Program-made: the position numbers and the translations under genes | NCBI GenBank assembly: GCA_030077755.1 | Contig: JAQJZZ010000019.1 | Location: 1,683,967 to 1,747,966, forward strand | Reading direction: 5' to 3' | Length of the DNA stretch: 64,000 nt | Origin: Filosporella fistucella | Lineage: Eukaryota; Ascomycota; Leotiomycetes; Helotiales | Notes under the pieces: model-generated | Database searches by the model: none | Told to the model about the DNA's origin: nothing | The model's input: only the letters and a program-made list of their open reading frames with translations | Part shown: piece after piece, positions 20,555 through 64,000 of the stretch | Layout: every line of letters begins with the position of its first letter | How positions within the stretch are numbered: position 1 is the stretch's first letter

Positions 20555-21400
20555 TTAAGCTGGAACATTATCTTCGCAATCCTGACTATTTTCAGTTCCT
20601 GTATCCTCGTCATTTTCTTCATCTGGCTCAAGTATCTTTTCGTCATCATGGCTTCCTGAATCTTCGCTATTCTCCTCAGGATCAAGTGCGCGGTCATTAT
20701 CACTTTCAACTTCTTCAACCCCGTTTCGTTTCTTCACTATTATGCCAAGCTCTCTCATCTTTTTCTCTTCTTCAGCTCTTTTCCCAGAATCCTCACGCAG
20801 CACTTCAATCATTCTGGGTGCCCAATATTTTTCCATGAAGGTCGTAAGTGGAAGTTCGACCTCCATGTACTTGATTTCGATTTCAGTCGCAAGCTCTTCA
20901 AGCTCCTGAATCATAAATCCCTCTTCCTCTCGTACTTGGTGGACTTCTTCACTGGATAATGGAGGTCTGGAAGATTTCCAAAAGTCAATGGGATCCTGAT
21001 GGGCAAGTAGGCGTCAACTCGAGCCATTCGAAGGCCTGGACTCGAAAACCCTCAATTGGGGTCCACGGTGCTTCTTGTATGGCGTGTTCAATGATTTTGA
21101 TGATTTTAATGATTTTAATTATTTTAATGCATATCGGAATTCTAACCTTGTCCCACTGGTATTCTCCCGACTGAAGTACTATTGGTTTATACCAAAATCG
21201 TGCTTTCTTCAAGGCCGAAGTGATAACGCGACATCATGTAGTTGAACAGCCACATTTGCAGTCATCGGCAGTGGCATCTTTGAGAATGAACTAGCTATTG
21301 TAGAATGCTTTATACTTAGACATCTGACCTCGAAGTCCCAGGTTCGTGGAGTTCTCATTCTGTGTCCTACAACTGCTCCGAGCGCATGTATCGCCATTCC
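20555..21400 (-). pseudogene. Probable decayed gene, acidic charged C-terminus, with 9-bp repeat expansion
   Basis: Minus-strand frames form one protein only with breaks. 21397-21209 (MAIHALGAVVGHRMRTPRTW) is followed by 21212-20985, encoding FWYKPIVLQSGEYQWDKVRI and then EAPWTPIEGFRVQAFEWLEL, and, after a frame change near 21000 with no adequate intron, DPIDFWKSSRPPLSSEEVHQ leading into the long frame 20914-20555 (FMIQELEELATEIEIKYMEV, then an acidic tail). A 9-bp repeat at 21092-21129 adds four Lys-Ile-Ile units in the middle. The layout resembles lineage-specific fungal genes of unknown role with a W-x-RPPLS motif. Frameshift plus repeat insertion suggest a pseudogene, but a mis-read intron cannot be excluded. 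Confidence 0.4.
21092..21129. repeat. Short tandem repeat, 9-bp unit (ATTTTAATG-like)
   Basis: Four near-identical units of gattttgat/gattttaat type lie in tandem, read on the minus strand as Lys-Ile-Ile repeats. It is inside the decayed gene and does not shift frame because the unit is a multiple of three. Confidence 0.7.
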
Positions 21401-21527
21401 GCCGCCTTCATAGTGTCGGGGATATACGTCAACTCCCTTGTCTTTATGCTACTATAGGATATTCAATAGCGCCCAATCTTCAATGAGGCCAGAGATCTGA
21501 TTCCAAAATGGCGTTAGCAGTTGAGAA

Positions 21528-21541
21528 TTAGGGTTAGGGGG
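21528..21541 (+). repeat. Interstitial telomere-like sequence (two TTAGGG units)
   Basis: TTAGGGTTAGGGGG occurs at the left edge of an AT-rich island (21540-21933), about 42 kb from the real telomere and in the same orientation. Two units could be chance, but the coincidence with an abrupt composition change is notable. Confidence 0.55.
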
Positions 21542-21933
21542 TTTAGTTCTTTTATTGCTCGGGTTATCTATAAAAATATCTAAAAATAAATATCCAAACT
21601 ATAACGATACAAGTACCGAACTGCGGGATAGTATATAAGAGTATAACACGGAGGCAATTCGGATATTGTTAGGTTTGCTATAAGGAAATAAGAAAGATGA
21701 AGACCAAAATAAGGGACTAGACCCTCTTATATATAGAAATTAGCTCGGAACCCGTTTGTAGCTAAATTAGGTTAACTTTAAACTTGTTAATTTATATTAA
21801 TATTATATAGTATTTTATATTATTATTATATTAATTTCTTCTTTTAAATTATAATAATGTTTTATAAAATTAAGTTTAGAAGCCATAAATCTAAATAAAA
21901 AATAATTTTAAAAAATCGATATCGCTATTTTGT
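21542..21933. other. AT-rich island, RIP-like
   Basis: About 390 bp of strongly AT-rich sequence (runs such as taatattatatagtattttatattattattata) between two normal-composition genes. It has the look of an old RIP-decayed repeat remnant; a TATA-like and LTR-like stretch (cctcttatatatagaaa) occurs at about 21722-21738. No coding frame. The stop of the next gene is at its right edge. Confidence 0.45.
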
Positions 21934-23472
21934 TTAATAGTTTAAATTGTCTCTCAAATTAATATAATTTGAAGAAGAATGCAATTGCTGTAATAGCTTG
22001 GCTATAGCATTAGGAGCACCTTCTAGGTATCTTTGGATCGAGTGCCCATCATGTTGCCGGAGATGATCTTCACGCAAGAAAACACCTGTACAACGAAGCA
22101 TTGTCTTTCCCCCTATACCCGTGACGAGAACCCACGAGCTGTTATCATAGCGATATTTATCGCCTTGGCTTAGACATGCCCTGGCACATCGACGTCTTTC
22201 CTGCTCATCTATGTAGTAATCAGATGTGGTCGTTCCAGCCATGCTACGGACGTCGTTATATGCCGTGATGTCAACTGTCGGAGTGCCGGACACTCTCATA
22301 TTGATGTCGGCGGCGGAGCCGAAGGACACGACAACATTTCTACTGAATATCTGTGTCTGCTCTTCTTTGGAAAAACCCAAATTCTGCATATCCTGGCGCA
22401 TAGCGTTATCTATCTGCTGCATGGTGGCAATACCGGAACTATGCGCTAGAAATCGCAATGGTGGCAAATTTTCAATCATACTGACGCTAATTCTTTTGGC
22501 ATATGTGTCGTCGCCATAAACGGGAACACCATCCCTTCGAACCACTATACCATTTGAGTTACAGAGAAGTCGGTTTGGATGCTGTATCAGACGTGGCAGA
22601 AGGATTGCCTCGTATAAGAGCCTTGACAAGTATCCTACGACAGAAGAATGTTCTTCAGTACCCAGTAGAAAGCGATTATACAGCATACTAGCTTCAACAA
22701 TCACAGATCCATCCTCATCCTGTCCGGAGTTAACAAGACCTAGTAATCGCATGGAGGATGAATACTGAGGCAACATTCGTCTCAAATTCTGTAAGAAAAC
22801 CGTTCCCAATCCCAAAGCAAGCTTGATTCCACCTGGATAGTTTGTTATTGGTGTAGTTGGTAGGACAATCCAATCAGTGTTGGAGATTTCTCGCTGCAAA
22901 GATTCCAAGGAAATAAACGGATCCTCACTACCTATTCTCAATGCCACTAAGCCTTTGGATTTCGGATCAGATTGACTTCGCTGTCGCATCCGTCGATATT
23001 CTGATTCGATGGCTTTGGATATCTTGGCAAGAAATGCGTCGTATCCGTCATGTTCCCGCAGTCGAGTGTGTAGAAGACCAGCACGATCATGATTGAAACA
23101 ACTTGGTATGAAAGAAAGGTACTCCAGACGTCTAAGGTTACCGCTCTTTCTCTGGCTTTCTACCGTCAGGTACCCTTGACTGTCAATGTGAGAGGCTGAC
23201 GCAAGATCCTCAAGCATAGCCTCAAAACGGCTTGAATCTTTCCCTTTCTCTTGCAATAGCTCGAACACATAATTCAAAGTCTGGATGTCATAAATATTGC
23301 GAAATTTTGCTCCACCTTCTTTTGGATAACGAGGCACTATACTTACTATATCGTAACGAGGCAAGATCGTAGTATATTTGAAGTCCAAGCATTTGCAGTA
23401 TTTCCATCCGTACTGCTTAGTTCGGACTTGTGAGCTGAATATAACCACCGTGAGAAGGAAAAAGGACCTCAT
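21934..23472 (-). CDS. Uncharacterised secreted protein, 512 aa, single exon
   Basis: The ATG at 23472 starts a 17-18 residue signal peptide (MRSFFLLTVVIFSSQVRT). The mature protein is long and without cysteine-rich modules or membrane segments. Recognisable stretches: GFSKEEQTQIFSRNVVVSFG, SGTPTVDITAYNDVRSMAGT, YYIDEQERRRCARACLSQGD, GVFLREDHLRQHDG. None identifies a family for me. The middle (about 270-330) looks like an ordered alpha/beta region. It lies immediately downstream of the GH18 chitinase (858 bp between stop 24330 and this start) on the same strand, which suggests a shared secretory role. Codon use and GC content are normal until the last ~25 codons, where the gene runs into the AT-rich island (C-terminus NYINLRDNLNY), so its stop may have been created by the repeat junction. 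Confidence 0.75.
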   Translation of the reverse strand: MRSFFLLTVVIFSSQVRTKQYGWKYCKCLDFKYTTILPRYDIVSIVPRYPKEGGAKFRNIYDIQTLNYVFELLQEKGKDSSRFEAMLEDLASASHIDSQGYLTVESQRKSGNLRRLEYLSFIPSCFNHDRAGLLHTRLREHDGYDAFLAKISKAIESEYRRMRQRSQSDPKSKGLVALRIGSEDPFISLESLQREISNTDWIVLPTTPITNYPGGIKLALGLGTVFLQNLRRMLPQYSSSMRLLGLVNSGQDEDGSVIVEASMLYNRFLLGTEEHSSVVGYLSRLLYEAILLPRLIQHPNRLLCNSNGIVVRRDGVPVYGDDTYAKRISVSMIENLPPLRFLAHSSGIATMQQIDNAMRQDMQNLGFSKEEQTQIFSRNVVVSFGSAADINMRVSGTPTVDITAYNDVRSMAGTTTSDYYIDEQERRRCARACLSQGDKYRYDNSSWVLVTGIGGKTMLRCTGVFLREDHLRQHDGHSIQRYLEGAPNAIAKLLQQLHSSSNYINLRDNLNY

Positions 23473-24329
23473 TTATTGACACATCCAGTGCCTGAGTGTT
23501 TCAAAATTGACGTTAGATAAGCATATTGTGAAAAGGGTCGCTGAATCGGGGCCAAACCCTGGGTGGAGATTAAGGGTAAGGTTCGATTCGTGTCCATTTA
23601 TATAACCGGGTCGTGGTTCAGACGACCCAAAGCATGTGGTCTAGACATTTCGCTATTATGGGTTGAAGTGCATACTCTATAGGCAGACAGAAAAGATCTA
23701 GGAGAGTTGCGAATTGAATAGCGGGAACATCGTGGATGGAAAGCTACGGATTTTGGGTTCTTCACAACCTCAATTCAGCATCACGAGGTTTGGATTTCCG
23801 TACCGTGTATTTGACCTCCTGATGAGGAATATCAATCAGCTTAAGGTTCGTGATCCTGGGATACACCTAGCATGTATCATGGATCTGGTAAAACAAGGAA
23901 AGCTTAAGACGTAACGGGGCGATTCGAGTACGATTACCCATAGGAATCCTTACAAGCTATTGACGCCAAATTGTTGTCTGAGACCACAATCCGAGCTGCC
24001 TTCTACCCCGCCCGGTCTTTTACTTCAATCATTTATAACATTATGCATGTGAAGATCACTGGCTAGTCCCTATCGATAATCAGATAGCTCGGAAATCATG
24101 CCTGCAGCAACTGAAAGCTGGAGTACACCTTTTGTTAAAGCCTGATAATGCTTATTCAATAACTACCAAGTATATATTAAAATGCTAGGCAACTTATGTG
24201 ACATCTTAAGTGGAAAATGGAAAAGAAAACGCCGTTCATCGAACCTCAGGTAAAGCAGCTCGCCAAGCCTAGCTCTAACATTCTTGAGAGTTTCCTCATA
24301 CCAAAAAAACGAAAGAGCACACCGTTGAT
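23473..24329. other. Intergenic, promoter of the 512-aa secreted protein and chitinase 3' region
   Basis: 857 bp. Frames are short (longest 66 codons at 23714). A GGTTCGATTC motif at about 23581 resembles a tRNA B-box but no cloverleaf can be formed. Confidence 0.4.
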
Positions 24330-27300
24330 TCACTGAGGAAGATCCAATCTGTCCACATAATTACCGGCGTCGTCGTACCGCCAATTATAAAATGTGACCT
24401 CGTTTCGATCATTCGTGAGCCTCAAAGGTGGCTGCCTGTACCGAACATAGATCTCGGAAGGGTCATCTATTGCGACTTGAAATATATATCGAAGCGCGCG
24501 TGAGTCAAGATAGTGACGATTCCATAAACCTTCCCCCCAGGTTACAAGTTCATCCGTCAATGCTGTTGGCTGAGTCCTAATCGAAGGAGGTGGCTCTCTT
24601 GAGCCGATGTACCAACGAGAATCAGTTCTGCACTCGAGCACGCCGGATCGTTCATTGGTAGTTTGGGTGTCCCGATATTCAACGCGTCGCTCGACCTGGT
24701 GCCCATCTGCCCTGGGGATCATAGTCCGCTGACCATGATATACACGAATTGCGTGGGTTCCTATATATGTGTGGTCGTTGATCGACCTTAGAAGATTTTC
24801 GGCAGCCCTGAAGTGAATGTGTATCACCACCCATCGATCGACTCCAGCGCGACCCGTTGATGTGTCTCGATAGCCGTTGAGTAGGTTCTCGATTTCTTCA
24901 GTGGCAGTAGGTGTTTCACCAGGTCTTGAACCTATCCAGTACGCAAGCTCGAGTGCAGGCCCACCTTGTCCTCCAAGATACATGTATTGCCAGCGAGCAT
25001 AATGCAATGACAAGTGGTTTCGGTTAATTCCACGAAGAATCGTCAACAATGAAGGTGGACCGTCGGCTGTTGCAGAAAAAGGAGCAGCTACAGTTTTGAA
25101 TAAGTAAGCGACGGACTTCAACGAGTAAGTGAGCATACCGTTAGGTGTAACAAATCTGTCCTTTATGTGAACCTCATGCCCGTTCCTCGCACTGAGATTT
25201 TTTTCGGACATATCATCTGCCAATGGGTCGGAGTCTCTTGGTATGATGACGGATTGTGGATACGTACAGAGATCAGTCCTAGCTGCATTCCTCTGTCTTA
25301 AACCTAGTGCGCCATCCTCTGGGTGGAGAAGTACTCCATCCATGAACGGAAAAGCATTCCATTGCATTAAATTTACCTCATTAGTGAGGCTATCTAGTCG
25401 AAGCACAGTATCAATGTGGTCTGCGACGCGAGTGTCCCTACGCGTTGGTAAGAATTGAGGCATGAGTGGAGAGTAGCCTTGGGGCTGAACTTTGGATGCA
25501 GAACTAACCATAAACCTTGGAGGCCCGATGAAGGACGAATGTAATTTGAGATCAAAGAGGCCACAAAATGGACAAGATTTTTAAAGTTCAAACGGCTGCA
25601 GGCTGGATTCTGCCTCGTTGAGACGACAGATCTCTTACTGGGTAGATCATAGTAAAGATCAGCGGGAGATTCACCGAAGATCCTTGCGGGGCAGGTGGTA
25701 TCTTTCATGTATTCGTCGATAAGACTAGAAAACTCCTTGTACTGATTGTTGCCAAAGTTAGGATCTCTCGGAACAACCACTGGTGGTGGAGCTCCAGCGC
25801 AGCAGTAAGCTTTCCATCCGGCCAGGCAATCACCCTTTTGCCTGGAAACGCGAATGGAATCGCTTGGACATGAAGTTTCACACAAAATATCAGCTTTCAG
25901 GTTGTGTGTTGCTTTGCTGAACCACTCGCAATTGGTCCACTGTGAGGGTGCTGGGTCTTTGCAACAATAACTTTTGGCTCCTTGGGTGCAGATCTGCTCG
26001 CCACCAGCACCAGCGCTCGACGCCACGATGAATTTTGGATAATCGGATGGACAATCAGCGTGCCCTCCCGATTTGGAGCAGACACCCGCAGAGCCAACCC
26101 ATTTGCAGTCATTATACGCTTCTACACTGGGTAGTGAAGTACAGCAAGCACTCTGGTGGCGGGACGAGCAGCCAACCGAAAGCGATCCGACTTCAGTTTC
26201 GTCTGCGTTGCATCCAGGCTTGCAAGCTCCCGAATTTCTGTGCCCACGCCAGAGACAAGTCGGTTGTTCTTGATCGGCGGGACAGCAGAATTGAGACGGG
26301 CCCAGACCCCAGCAGAGACTTCCGTCAGTCATCATTTCATCCGTTCCATCTCTTGGGACATTCTTGAAGCCGCTGGGGCATAGTTCGTTGCAATTGGTCC
26401 ATTTACACGTCCGTACAATGGAAGGAGGCTGAATCGTTTCTTGTGGTTCGAAGACGGGATCGTCCATGACTATTGGAGTATTTCATGTTAGCCCAGTTGA
26501 AAAATTCGAAGATGGGAATCTGAAGTTAGAAATAGGAGCTGTTGGTATTTAGTTTGTGGTGCAGTGCATACCTTTACGGCCTAATGCCTTCGTTAGAGCT
26601 TTGCCAGACGTTCCGTCCAAGTCGTCATGGCTTACTGCCCAAACCATGACGTTTTTAATGCACTGTTCTTTAAGCAATTTGGCCTTGATTTCCCAGGTGT
26701 CCGCATCATCGTATGTTACCCATTGATTACCCCAGCTTACCACCTTGACAGCTGCTGCTTGATCCAGCTTAGGCGTAAGGTTTTTTTCCTTCATAATAGC
26801 TTGAATTTCGGGATTCAAAAGTACACCCGCAGTGCTGGAGCAATTTCCGGGGTTGCCACCAGAGGATATTAGACATCCGGTAGTCAAGCAGTTGGGATCA
26901 GCCATAGTAGAGCTACGGCCATAATAAGCCATACCAAAGACAACTTTATCGGGACTTATTTCATTCCTCCAAAGCAGATCGAGCGAGCTCTGAATCTCAG
27001 TCAGGTTGGTGTGACTATTAGTGTAAGGCATAGGATAGTTCCCCTTCAAATCCCATGATCCGTGAAGATCATATAGCATAACGTTAAACCAGTCGACGTA
27101 TAGCTGGAGAGAAACAATATCAAAGTGCTGTAAATACCAGAAACTAGACGGAATGGTGATACTCAACCCCTTGGGGCCTAACTTTTCCTTGAGGCTCTTC
27201 ATCCACGACACTAGGTTCTTATAGTCTTCGGGCTTTCCGTTTCTATCGTCTGCTCTAGGATATTCCCTTACATATTGTTAGCTCGTTCTTGTCTCATATG

Positions 27301-28252
27301 GGTAGTGTAAAATAATACCAATCGATATCTACTCCATCAAATCCGTATGTGTTCATCATAGAGATAAGCGAGTTTGCGAATACTTCTTGATGAGCAGGTG
27401 AAGCAGCAAGTTCAGAGAATGTATTTGCAGTAGGCTCGCCAGGATCGTTAAACGCCCAACCGCCAATAGCAACCCAAATCTTCACTCCGTCTTGGAAGAT
27501 TTTGATATTCCTCATTCTTGTCATCAATTCGTCGGCTTTAGCGCTGCTGGCCTTAACCTCGAAGGTCTTAGAATCAATGGTAGCGAACGCGAAGCTTCAT
27601 GCACGTGTTAATTTTCCATCACCAAAAGACTCAAACATAAGCTTACTTGATATGTGTATATATCCCGTACGGGATCTGCTCTGGAGTCATGCCATTGCAA
27701 CTCCTCTCCGTCAAGGACCATGATTCGTAATATCCGATCACTTTCTGGATGCTGGTCGACGCTGCTGAGCAGGATGGTCTTTTCACCTTAGCGCCAGCAC
27801 AGAAATCATTCGAGGTACCGCAGAATCCAAACTATATGAAGTTAGTTATGGCTTGCAGTTCGGATGGAATTCTGTGTATGGCTAACTTTTGAGCAGCAAA
27901 CATTCAAGGGACATTTTGTGCTGTTCGACCATTGGGTGCCCCATCCAGGGTCACATTCAGATTTAGCATCGCAGTTTACTACGCACGTTGGCTTGGTGCA
28001 AAAGTCTGGACCCATCCCACACCATCCACTACTACCTACTCACATATCAGTTAACACTCTTACACTTGCCGTATCCGCGAATTGAAGCCGGATTGAAAGA
28101 GTCAGCCTTTCTCAAGGACGAGTGAACTTACTGCAACATCCGAGAGCACATGGTTTGGAAGCGCTGCAATCTTGCTGATACGACAATTGAACGCAAAAAA
28201 TAAGGAGTGCAAGAAGTGAGGGAAGACTGGAACGGCCATATTTGATCTTCAT
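24330..28252 (-). CDS. GH18 chitinase, killer-toxin-like (subgroup C) type, with chitin-binding and Cys-repeat regions (about 1147 aa, 8 exons)
   Basis: Exons on minus: 28252-28132, 28035-27887, 27831-27647, 27594-27319, 27266-26572, 26469-25509, 25437-25139, 25087-24330. Every junction has GT...AG and keeps frame; the last intron (25138-25088, 51 nt) is itself in frame, so 1164 aa is possible if retained. Signal peptide to about residue 25; chitin-binding type 1 cysteines from C29 (CALGCCSSSGWCGMGPDFC); second Cys cluster NVCCSKFGFCGTSNDFC. GH18 domain: VIGYYESW, KIWVAIGGWAFNDPG and the catalytic DGVDIDWE at 238-245 with acid Glu245, split by an intron yet intact. After the GH18 domain come four ~45-residue Cys repeats ending in CC (about 497-538, 547-585, 597-645, 656-699), then a ~440-residue C-terminal region of unknown function. 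Family: secreted chitin hydrolysis, often beside LysM genes in fungi. Confidence 0.88.
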
Positions 28253-29266
28253 TGCGTCAGAGCGTAGCTACCGAGTTTAGAGTTGGATGGAGGGAATGCG
28301 AGAATTCACGAAGTAAAGTGTAGACAGAGAAGAACACTTCGAAATAGATATCTGGACGCAGGAAAGGAAATAATTGCATTCGAGATTTCCGGGAGAAGTA
28401 CCCGTGGACATGCCCTGATGGCGGGCGAGCTCTTGAAGGAGCACATGTGGGCCTCGGACTCGTTTTCCGTCGAATGGAACAAATTTCTGTTGGTCGTGAA
28501 ATGCTCCCATTTTGGGACGAGTTGCCATTCTATTTCTCTATACTCCTGGCAATGCAACATCCGGTGTGTTGGTAATTTGGTGGCTTGACATTACCCAAAC
28601 GACAGAGTAACGAACGTTGATGGAACAGAGTCTGCATTGGGCAGATATGTGCTGCAAGCGAGCCTAGGTCGAACTAAACGCATGGCAGTAAGGGAGAGTC
28701 GGAGCACATTTTAAGATTACTTAGGTGAATCCTATCTGGTCGTCAAGGCTAAGTCTTAGGGTAACTGTTCGGATAAATCATCAATTTACAGCAATAGTGG
28801 AAAATTGCGATCGCAGGTACATACCTACCTAGGTCCAATTCGTTGGCGTGGAAAGTCCATTTATCCAGGGTCCATCTGAAGCATAACCTCCTCCGCACCA
28901 ATATTTATTCCTGATTTAGGTAAGTCTAGCCAAGTCTGAAATTTACTGATACCTATATAACCACTTGACATGTATTTACAAGGGAAATTTCCACTTCATT
29001 GATGCTACCACTCTCAAAATTGGCACTCTAAATAATCATGAGATCTCAAGGGTCTGCAGCTGCAAAACGCACTAGGAAGGAGATCCAATTTTCCCAGATG
29101 CAACAAGGTGCCACTCAATGTTACAAGCATTATGTGAGCAAATTTTCACGTGCACCCAGCACGATTCAATTTCCTCGTCCAAGTACCATCTCAGGCTTTT
29201 CAACCTCAGTTTCTCAGAAAATTTTCAAGTAACAACGAGAATCTTTTCACTTCTTTATCTTTTCGA
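28253..29266. promoter_or_regulatory. Divergent promoter region, chitinase / LysM protein
   Basis: 1014 bp between outward-facing starts of two chitin-related secreted proteins. Co-regulation is plausible. Features: repeated TACCTA/TAGGTA motifs (28817-28833, 28918-28925, about 28953), and a pyrimidine-rich leader before the LysM ATG. Short frames here (28277-28588) lack support. Confidence 0.5.
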
Positions 29267-31781
29267 ATGGCTCCACGTTTCATTCTCGGTTGTGTAGTGG
29301 CTGTTCTGGCCACTGTTGCTTCTGCGGATCCGGTCAATGTTCATGACGATCTAAACTTTCAGCTCGAACATTTCCATGCTAGGAATCTTCGAATGCCGAG
29401 TAATGAACGGGGAGATATTGGTGTGAGAGCGGTGTTCACTGGATTCCAACTGGCCCAGAAACCGTTGCTGTCTGGACTTGGCTTGTCCGTAGCGTGCGAA
29501 GAGGCGCTCTATCAACCGTTGAAATGCGACAACTTCACAGCAAGCTTAGGGGGGTCGACTTATCATGGAAGCATCCCAGATGCGGCTTTACTGGCTTCCG
29601 TCTGTGACCCAGCCTGCTCTACAGCAATGAGAACCTTACGTGCGAATATCGCTATAGCTTGTGCTACTTCACCGACACTCTCTCCTGGATATCCAACACT
29701 GGCACTGATTGATAGTATCCGAGGAGGATGGAATGAGACGTGTTTGACGGACACAGCCAGTGGGAAAAACTGTAATGGTGGGTGTGCTTATCATGGAATG
29801 TGTTGATAGCGGTTTCCAGACTAATGTGAATTACACAGATATCATTGCGTCTTGGCCCGAGGTTGATGAGTTATCTAGCATGCCAATATCACAGCTCTGC
29901 TCATTTTGCTATGGCGCGAAACTTTTGACAATGAAGCAAAATCCGTACGGAGCATATGATAGCAGTGACTATAAAGTCCGGTACGACTACGTCATCAAAA
30001 GTATAGTGTTCAACTTCACATATGATTGATTTGTATTAATGCATCATCAGCTTGTGGGCTGCCCGCTCAAGATACTGCCCCATCTACAGGAGGTATACAT
30101 TTCCTCGGCGACACTCCTAAGTGTCCTGCAAAGTCATACACAGTGAAGGCAAGCCACCCCAGCACTCCCATCACAAAAGCAAGACTGACTGACTGTTCAA
30201 TTCATATAGTCTGGCGATAATTGCGACTCCATTGCAAAAGCCAGCCTTGTATCATCGGGAAGCATGTATGAGATCAATCCACTTCTACTTAATTGCAGCA
30301 GTCCGATAGTGGGTCTAATCATATGCTTGCCGCCTCAATGCGAGAAGATCTACACAGTTCAGGCTAACGATACATGCAATACCATCGGATTTGCTTCCGG
30401 AATATCATGGCTTAGTGTCATTGCCTTTAATGGAATGGTTGATCGATGGTGTTCTAATCTTTGGAATTCGAAACCAAGCTGGGGTCATACGCTGTGTGTC
30501 ACTCCTCCTGGCGGCACATTCATCAGCATTCCAACGAATACTTCGGGTGGTAATCTCGGTGGGCAGGGAGGAATTGGCGACGGATACGGAGCAGATGTTG
30601 TCGCTCTGCCAACCGGTGCAGTGCTTGCTGCTGGAACGACATCTAAATGTGGACAATTCTATACCACCAAAATTGGAGACACTTGCGCGAGTATCTTCAC
30701 TCTCGCGAATACACCGTCTGATTTATTTATAGCAGCGAATCCATCGTTGATATCTGCTTTAACTTGTTCTTCGAATGTCATTCCTGGCCGCACTTATTGT
30801 ATTCATCCAGTTCGGGGATGGGACGAGGGTTTGGTTTCGTCCACCACCACCAAGGCATCTTCTAGTGCTTTCAGCACCACAACTTCCAAACCAGCAACCA
30901 CCACCACTTCCACTGGTAGTGGTATTGCCACCCCTACACCAATACAGACTGGAATGGTAACAAGCTGCAACACTTTCTACAAGGTGCAGTCTGGTGATGA
31001 GTGTGGTACTCTCGCTGCCGCCAAAGGCATATCCTTGGCGAACTTCTATGTGTGGAACCCAGCAGTCGGAGCGAGCTGCCAATCTTTGCAACTCGGAGTA
31101 TATGTTTGCGTCAATATCATCGGAAGAGTGCCAATAAGTCTCGATGGTCGATGCGGCGATGGCTCGTCTACTAAGGCGACGTGCGCTGGAAGCTCCTTTG
31201 GCAAGTGTTGTTCCCCAAAATCAAATTGCGGCAGTACTCCTGCCTTTTGTCGTACAGAAGTCGGTTGTCAACCGGCTTATGGAATATGCACACCTAAAAC
31301 CACCGATGGTCGCTGTGGTGATGCTTCATCAACTAAGGCGACTTGTACCGGTAGCTCCCTGGGTCAATGCTGCTCCGTAAAAGGAAACTGTGGAGACTCT
31401 GCTGCGTATTGCGCTACTTTCAATAACTGTCAGCCTATGTTTGGAACATGCTACCCGATAAGCACGGATGGAAAATGTGGATCAGCATCTTCTACGACAG
31501 CCTCGTGCTCTGGTAGTACATTTGGGAAGTGTTGCTCTGTCAAAGGGAACTGTGGTGATTCAGATGCCTTCTGCGCTGCCAAAAATAATTGCCAGCCTAA
31601 CTTTGGAACGTGTTATACGGCAAGCACCGACGGAAAATGCGGATCAGCGTCGACGACAAGTGCATCTTGTAGCGGTAGTACTTTTGGAAAATGCTGCTCC
31701 GTAAAGGGGAACTGTGGGGACACAGCTGCTTTTTGTGCATTGATGAATAATTGCCAACCTCAGTTTGGTATATGTACATAA
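29267..31781 (+). CDS. Secreted LysM and chitin-binding type 1 protein (780 aa, 4 exons, one GC-AG intron)
   Basis: Exons 29267-29777, 29839-30000, 30051-30148, 30210-31781. Introns 1 and 2 are GT-AG (GTGGGT...ACAG, GTATAG...TCAG); intron 3 starts GCAAGC after AAG and ends ATATAG, a GC-AG intron that joins SYTVK to SGDNCDSIAK inside a LysM. Signal peptide MAPRFILGCVVAVLATVASA. The N-terminal ~240 residues are a Cys-containing region usual in large LysM proteins (SGKNCN, then DIIASWPEVDEL, LCSFCYGAK). LysM modules at about 250-300, 303-352, 405-456 and 512-558 (YTVQANDTCNTIG, YTTKIGDTCASI, YKVQSGDECGTL). A Ser/Thr linker lies before LysM4. Four ChtBD1 modules at about 566-780 end the protein. 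No catalytic domain. Expected role: binding of chitin in wall or environment. Resembles LysM proteins coupled to subgroup C chitinases, such as Trichoderma TAL6 beside its chitinase. Confidence 0.88.
31134..31781 (+). repeat. Four tandem chitin-binding type 1 modules inside the LysM gene
   Basis: Four units of 50-54 codons, each with eight cysteines in the pattern DG(R/K)CG...C...GxCC S...NCG...FC/YC...CQPxxGxC. Units 3 and 4 are the closest pair (both start TDGKCGSAS and contain GSTFGKCCSVKGNCGD), so they are probably the most recent duplication. Unit 1 is the most divergent. Confidence 0.85.
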
Positions 31782-63902: not shown

Positions 63903-64000
63903 TTAGGGGTTAGGGTTAGGGTTAGGGTTAGGGTTAGGGTTAGGGTTAGGGTTAGGGTTAGGGTTAGGGTTAGGGTTAGGGTTAGGGTTAGGGTTAGGGT
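63903..64000 (+). repeat. Telomere, (TTAGGG)n
   Basis: After one TTAGGGG unit, perfect TTAGGG hexamers run from 63910 to the last base (about 15 units). The G-rich strand runs 5' to 3' toward the window end, the orientation expected at a right chromosome end. Confidence 0.98.

What the first reader, a model, noticed from the sequence alone, without database searches (positions are those of the whole stretch)
21934..31781. Secreted chitin set: GH18 killer-toxin-like chitinase, LysM/ChtBD1 protein and an unknown 512-aa secreted partner
Seen: three secreted proteins in a row, two of them divergent across 1 kb and both carrying chitin-binding type 1 modules; the third directly downstream of the chitinase on the same strand. 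Established: subgroup C chitinases share the GH18 plus chitin-binding layout with the alpha subunit of yeast zymocin and often lie beside LysM genes in fungi. Inference: the 512-aa protein may be a third component, by analogy with multi-subunit killer systems or self-protection factors. I recognise no family for it, so this is the best candidate for an undescribed function here.
Basis: partly seen in the sequence, partly recalled or inferred. Interest (0 to 1): 0.8.

Follow-up and report, generated by a model that had tools for sequence, protein, structure and literature searches.

The report
Bacterial enzyme half in fungal subtelomere
Next to an ordinary fungal chitinase and chitin-binding gene pair, near a chromosome end, sits a gene that looks acquired from bacteria: only the back half of an oxalate-making enzyme, so it is probably a borrowed enzyme put to some other use rather than a third part of the chitin system.

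The parts
21934..23472 (-). Single-exon ORF, 512 aa: C-terminal half of an Obc1-type enzyme (Obc1_C at residues 184-500, partial Obc1_cap at 48-155); candidate active-site residues Ser345, His477, Asp407, Arg267
23332..23472 (-). New N-terminus (residues 1-47) without BLASTP match to the bacterial relative, candidate signal peptide MRSFFLLTVVIFSSQVRT
   Evidence: pLDDT under 50 for residues 1-54; hydropathy 3.13, at least 3.1 in 4 of 157 control ORFs
24330..28252 (-). GH18 chitinase gene, 7 exons, 1164 aa: two ChtBD1 stretches, GH18 at residues 120-458, Cys-rich region, C-terminal region without a Pfam match
   Evidence: spliced model and DxxDxDxE motif, Pfam
28132..28252 (-). chitinase exon 1 (hydrophobic N-terminus)
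27887..28035 (-). chitinase exon 2
27647..27831 (-). chitinase exon 3
27319..27594 (-). chitinase exon 4 (GH18)
26572..27266 (-). chitinase exon 5 (GH18)
25509..26469 (-). chitinase exon 6 (Cys-rich region)
   Evidence: partial match to P0006
24330..25437 (-). chitinase exon 7, C-terminal region; relatives P0005, P0006, P0007 (the last from Aspergillus foveolatus)
29267..31781 (+). LysM/ChtBD1 protein gene with hydrophobic N-terminus, exons 29267-29777, 29839-30000, 30051-30148, 30210-31781; 780 aa; third intron is GC-AG
   Evidence: model; 4 LysM and 4 ChtBD1 stretches in the last exon
63907..64000 (+). Telomere, (TTAGGG)n; the window ends at the end of contig C17

Best explanation
The 512-aa gene is a horizontally acquired, 5'-truncated bacterial obc1: only the cap (in part) and serine-hydrolase half of a comamonad-type Obc1 was kept, it adapted to fungal codon use, and it gained a short new N-terminus. 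Shown by computation: family, fold, absence of the BKACE half, single copy, subtelomeric position. Inferred: direction of transfer, and that the enzyme is still active. Most likely mechanism: an alpha/beta-fold serine hydrolase whose Ser345 (with His477, Asp407 and the Arg267 oxyanion site) attacks an acyl or thioester carbonyl. Because the domain that makes the CoA adduct from oxaloacetate and acetyl-CoA is absent, it is probably uncoupled from Obc-type oxalate synthesis and acts on another small acyl ester or thioester. The chitinase/LysM pair beside it is an ordinary fungal chitin-degradation and hyphal-protection or antagonism pair; the Obc-like gene most likely lies next to it because both sit in a rearranging subtelomere, not because it is a third component.
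Against: No transcript, activity or localisation data. The first part of the cap domain (66 profile positions) is missing, so the enzyme may be impaired. The window branch is long (0.55 against 0.29 for P0001) and its composition deviates. The hydrophobic N-terminus (4 of 157 controls) argues for secretion, which fits a repurposed extracellular role better than a cytosolic CoA enzyme. The organism behind P0001 is unknown. Rooting of the tree is by midpoint. Six-frame searches could miss an N-half broken into short exons. Neighbourhood in other fungi is untested, so a linked role is not excluded.
Confidence: 0.72

Rival explanations
1. The transferred hydrolase gained a real signal peptide and now acts outside the cell as part of the chitin locus: the chitinase opens the rival's wall, the LysM/ChtBD1 protein shields the producer, and the Obc-like hydrolase acts on a wall, membrane or metabolite ester of the rival.
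For: Same strand and about 0.86 kb from the chitinase stop; new N-terminus with a hydrophobic run rare among control ORFs, 4 of 157; a chitinase/LysM pair is co-induced on chitin in Clonostachys rosea (PMC7176902 passages).
Against: Only 1 of 7 divergent chitinase and LysM/ChtBD1 places in this genome has it; bacterial relatives are fused to a CoA-dependent domain and their neighbours are unrelated to chitin in the 2 of 8 loci read; a signal peptide was not confirmed by any dedicated predictor.
Confidence: 0.12
2. The gene is a passenger: a transferred fragment with an open frame by recency or luck, no longer doing anything.
For: 5' part of the cap and the whole N-half are missing; the window row has the longest branch of the four rows in its clade.
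Against: 512 codons without a stop; 98 of 112 bacterially invariant columns kept, including the Ser, His, Asp and Arg positions, although the composition is that of fungal genes, which implies long residence under constraint unless the donor had a similar composition.
Confidence: 0.13
3. The fungus still uses it in oxalate metabolism, with another protein supplying the CoA adduct or a related substrate.
For: Active-site positions are conserved; PEP_mutase-family genes, the family that holds fungal oxaloacetate acetylhydrolase (recalled), are present: 6 matches, 5 of them over the cut-off, so oxalate chemistry is plausible.
Against: No BKACE or ObcA_N-type half in the genome; a secreted form would not meet CoA substrates.
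Confidence: 0.06
4. Assembly artefact or bacterial contamination joined to a fungal contig.
For: Strong bacterial affinity.
Against: Fungal GC3; lies beside an intron-bearing fungal gene on a 1.75-Mb contig that ends in a telomere; 53% at most to any named bacterial relative found (P0001, organism unknown, 60%).
Confidence: 0.02

Closest known systems
Obc1 (oxalate biosynthetic component 1) of Burkholderia, PDB 5iky/5ikz
   Different: Fungal protein lacks ObcA_N, BKACE and the first part of the cap, is stand-alone, has a new N-terminus, and lies in a fungal subtelomere
Obc1 of Paracidovorax cattleyae and two unnamed relatives G389, G331 (comamonad type)
   Same: Closest named relative, 53% identity; same clade in the tree
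   Different: Bacterial genes are full fusions; P. cattleyae obc1 is followed by an FAD-NAD(P)-binding protein gene (neighbours of G389 and G331 not read); oxalate activity of this subfamily is not documented in what I read
Subgroup C (killer-toxin-like) chitinase beside a LysM gene, e.g. tac6/tal6 of Trichoderma atroviride, chiC1/lysm2 of Clonostachys rosea
   Same: GH18 plus ChtBD1 chitinase adjacent to a LysM protein gene (passages)
   Different: This chitinase has no LysM match; the LysM protein also carries four ChtBD1 stretches; the extra Obc-like gene is not mentioned in the passages seen

Membership tests
Obc1 (bifunctional oxalate-synthesis enzyme) | C-terminal Obc1_C hydrolase domain | tested here: met
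   414.5 bits against cut-off 27, profile 27-356 of 370
Obc1 (bifunctional oxalate-synthesis enzyme) | complete Obc1_cap domain | tested here: not met
   only profile positions 67-177 of 179 match; no upstream exon found
Obc1 (bifunctional oxalate-synthesis enzyme) | N-terminal ObcA_N and BKACE domains forming the CoA adduct | tested here: not met
   absent from the ORF and no BKACE or P0004 N-half match in the genome; present in 8 of 8 bacterial loci examined; P0002 (563 aa, contig of 2,770 bases), the G268 fragments and the weak G514 hit were not examined for it
Obc1 (bifunctional oxalate-synthesis enzyme) | catalytic Ser, His, Asp and oxyanion Arg | tested here: met
   S345, H477, D407, R267 invariant in the 11-row alignment; which residues are catalytic is recalled from Oh et al. 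2016 (not held); that Obc1 has an arginine oxyanion hole is stated in a passage
Obc1 (bifunctional oxalate-synthesis enzyme) | makes oxalate, acetoacetate and CoA from oxaloacetate and acetyl-CoA | not testable with these tools
   needs an enzyme assay; activity of the B. mallei enzyme is reported in PMC5028181
Subgroup C fungal chitinase | GH18 with DxxDxDxE catalytic motif | tested here: met
   GH18 E 1.3e-59, DGVDIDWE at residue 238
Subgroup C fungal chitinase | CBM18 (ChtBD1) modules | tested here: met
   2 stretches
Subgroup C fungal chitinase | LysM (CBM50) modules in the chitinase | tested here: not met
   no LysM match at E 0.01; PMC4392113 passages state multiple CBM50 and CBM18 and 150-250 kDa, whereas this protein has 1164 aa. 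So it resembles subgroup C in layout and neighbourhood but is not filed as a full member
Subgroup C fungal chitinase | phylogenetic placement in subgroup C | not tested
   no reference set of named fungal chitinases was used
Zymocin-type killer system | separate gamma-toxin and immunity gene with the chitinase subunit | not tested
   no zymocin sequence was compared; the 512-aa neighbour is an Obc1-type hydrolase by Pfam

The most novel reading that the evidence does not exclude
A bacterial CoA-pathway serine hydrolase was cut free of its partner domain, given a fungal secretion signal after transfer, and recruited as an extracellular third component of a chitinase/LysM antagonism locus.
Probability: 0.08. 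Interest if true: 0.75.

Novelty: new variant of a known kind. Interest (0 to 1): 0.42.

Why it matters
It turns a 'no known family' gene into a testable case: a eukaryote holding only the hydrolase half of a two-step bacterial enzyme. Its substrate would tell what this serine hydrolase with an arginine oxyanion hole does when freed from the adduct-making domain. If it is secreted, it would be an example of an imported cytosolic enzyme becoming extracellular. It also warns against reading a neighbour of a chitinase/LysM pair as a component of it.

Tried and rejected
Upstream exon for the missing cap start: HMM from 9 bacterial rows against minus-strand frames of 21000-28400; best E 0.12, in a non-coding frame inside the chitinase gene. 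Remnant of the N-half in the window: tblastn of P0004 gave only the known match plus chance hits at E 0.77 and above. Relatives in viral contigs and plasmids: none at the limits used. The first protein-database search returned P0001 and P0002, the second, with a profile, only P0001; both scored only the candidates sharing most words, and full fusions are too long for that tool's length window, so they say nothing about those. The genome-contig scan found 6 loci by two short patterns and missed G389 and G331, found later, so it is not a census. Prokaryote distribution: 4 of 399 genomes sampled from the family of Paracidovorax (itself among them; one, G268, in two fragments) match alignment A1; 2 of 399 sampled from its order match PF21498 at E 0.001, 1 over the cut-off, and that one is Paracidovorax itself. 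Model of the chitinase C-terminal region: mean pLDDT 43.8, too poor to search. NCBIfam gives no match for the 512-aa protein. Literature: no paper in the held library has 'oxalate biosynthetic component' together with 'horizontal', or 'PF21498'; the Obc listings show no fungal obc gene in titles or abstract starts; (two of three terms) lists surveys of bacterium-to-fungus transfer, such as PMC11708051, that I did not open and that may contain this gene in their tables. Oh et al. 2016 on the Obc1 structure is not held. Papers: PMC5028181 read in part 1 of 4 and passages; PMC7176902, PMC4392113, PMC6972931, PMC8767022 passages only; the others search listing only.

Full report
What is there. The window is the last 64 kb of contig C17 of a 45.8-Mb, 19-contig assembly and ends in a telomere, (TTAGGG)n at 63907-64000. 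The finding lies about 32-42 kb from that end. Three genes are present. The chitinase (24330-28252, minus) is a 7-exon, 1164-aa protein with a hydrophobic N-terminus, two ChtBD1 stretches, a GH18 domain with an intact DGVDIDWE motif, a cysteine-rich region and a C-terminal region without a Pfam match. The divergent gene (29267-31781, plus) is a 4-exon, 780-aa protein, with 4 LysM and 4 ChtBD1 stretches in its last exon. The third (21934-23472, minus) is one 512-codon open frame. The gene models of the first two are mine, with no transcript evidence.

It is only half of the enzyme. Eight bacterial loci examined (6, plus G389 and G331) all carry ObcA_N, BKACE, cap and Obc1_C domains in one chain (the G389 and G331 frames are cut at the locus start). 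Not examined for architecture: P0002, 563 aa on a contig of 2,770 bases, the two G268 fragments and the weak G514 hit. In the fungal frame the BLASTP match to P. cattleyae begins at residue 48, RYP, inside the cap domain. A profile of the missing cap start found no upstream exon, and the fungal genome has no BKACE match and no match to the N-half of P. cattleyae Obc1; both searches ignore introns. The gene is single-copy.

It came from bacteria. The best named relative is Paracidovorax cattleyae Obc1, 53% identity and 72% positives over 455 columns. In a maximum-likelihood tree the fungal protein pairs with the metagenomic P0001 (99/97), beside P. cattleyae plus G389 (87/89; four rows together 100/99), with G331 outside and the Burkholderia, Trinickia and Robbsia sequences on the other side. 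The root is a midpoint for drawing only and the fungal row has a deviating composition, so direction is inferred. The organism of P0001 is unknown, and it is equally close to the window (60%) and to P. cattleyae (61%). The family is sparse: 4 of 399 sampled genomes of the same bacterial family and 1 of 399 of the order over the cut-off, that one being Paracidovorax itself. Third-position GC of the fungal gene is 0.424, like 8 other coding stretches of the window (0.354-0.496) and unlike 0.862 in P. cattleyae, so the transfer is old or from an unsampled donor, and contamination is unlikely.

Is it still an enzyme? Of 112 columns that are invariant in 9 bacterial rows, the window keeps 98; three of the 14 losses (42, 44, 45) lie in the N-terminus before the BLASTP match. 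P0001 keeps 82 of 87, and leave-one-out values for bacterial rows run from 112 of 130 to 112 of 112. The candidate catalytic positions Ser345, His477, Asp407 and Arg267 are invariant in all 11 rows. By hand count they correspond to Ser935, His1069, Asp997 and Arg856 of B. thailandensis Obc1; those roles are recalled from Oh et al. 2016, which is not held. A passage in PMC6972931 states that Obc1 has an arginine oxyanion hole. So a working serine hydrolase is likely; its substrate is unknown, and without the BKACE half Obc-type oxalate synthesis is unlikely.

Is it secreted? The new N-terminus has a hydrophobic run with a best 9-residue mean of 3.13; a value of at least 3.1 is reached by 4 of 157 mechanical ATG ORFs of 40-149 aa from window 1-38000. 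That favours a signal peptide but does not show one, and no predictor was available. Residues 1-54 are modelled without confidence.

Is it a third chitin component? Chitinase genes beside LysM genes are described: tal6 beside tac6 and other tal genes in Trichoderma (PMC4392113 passages) and lysm2 beside chiC1 in C. rosea, co-induced on chitin (PMC7176902 passages). In this genome 8 of 25 merged GH18 match clusters have a LysM or ChtBD1 match on the opposite strand upstream within 8 kb; two share one partner, so 7 places including this one (from, whose lists are lower bounds). No chance control was run for this count, and some partners show only ChtBD1. The Obc-like gene occurs at one. In the two bacterial loci whose neighbours were read (2 of 8) none of the 6 neighbours scanned is a chitinase or LysM gene. 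The simplest reading is chance adjacency in a subtelomere. The test that would change this, neighbourhoods in other fungi, could not be run.

Verdict. The observation of three genes stands; the label 'unknown family' falls; 'third component' is unsupported but not excluded. What remains of interest is a solitary, transferred half of a bifunctional bacterial enzyme, with conserved active-site positions and a possible new secretion signal, in a fungal subtelomere. I saw no report of it in the searches; surveys of bacterium-to-fungus transfer listed were not opened and their tables may hold it.

Noticed in passing
window 21528-21541: Interstitial telomere-like TTAGGGTTAGGGGG about 0.4 kb past the 3' end of the Obc-like gene, followed by an AT-rich stretch (GC down to 0.155); the only TTAGGGTTAGGG outside the terminal array in the window, and among the 90 loci fetched by then only the two that overlap this place have it. 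Possibly a fossil chromosome end or break repair.
   Followed up: partly
window 38000-63900: Long AT-rich stretch (GC 0.20-0.42) before the telomere, looking like a degraded, RIP-type subtelomere.
   Followed up: no
window 23327-23363: A 10-bp word, TAACGAGGCA, is repeated 27 bp apart where homology to Obc1 begins, giving PRY twice in the protein; may mark the junction (read by eye).
   Followed up: no
window 30149-30209: The third intron of the LysM/ChtBD1 gene appears to use GC-AG ends.
   Followed up: no
window 24330-25437: The chitinase C-terminal region has no Pfam match and no second copy in the genome; relatives include a 408-aa Aspergillus foveolatus protein. Fold not predictable here.
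   Followed up: partly
L002:7428-8861 and L004:7493-8977: Bacterial obc1 is followed by an FAD-NAD(P)-binding protein gene in both loci read; its role is not explained by what I read.
   Followed up: no
G000:C12:611325-613898: A very long open frame (1514 aa) in the same genome with several stretches matching the ChtBD1 part of the LysM/ChtBD1 protein.
   Followed up: no
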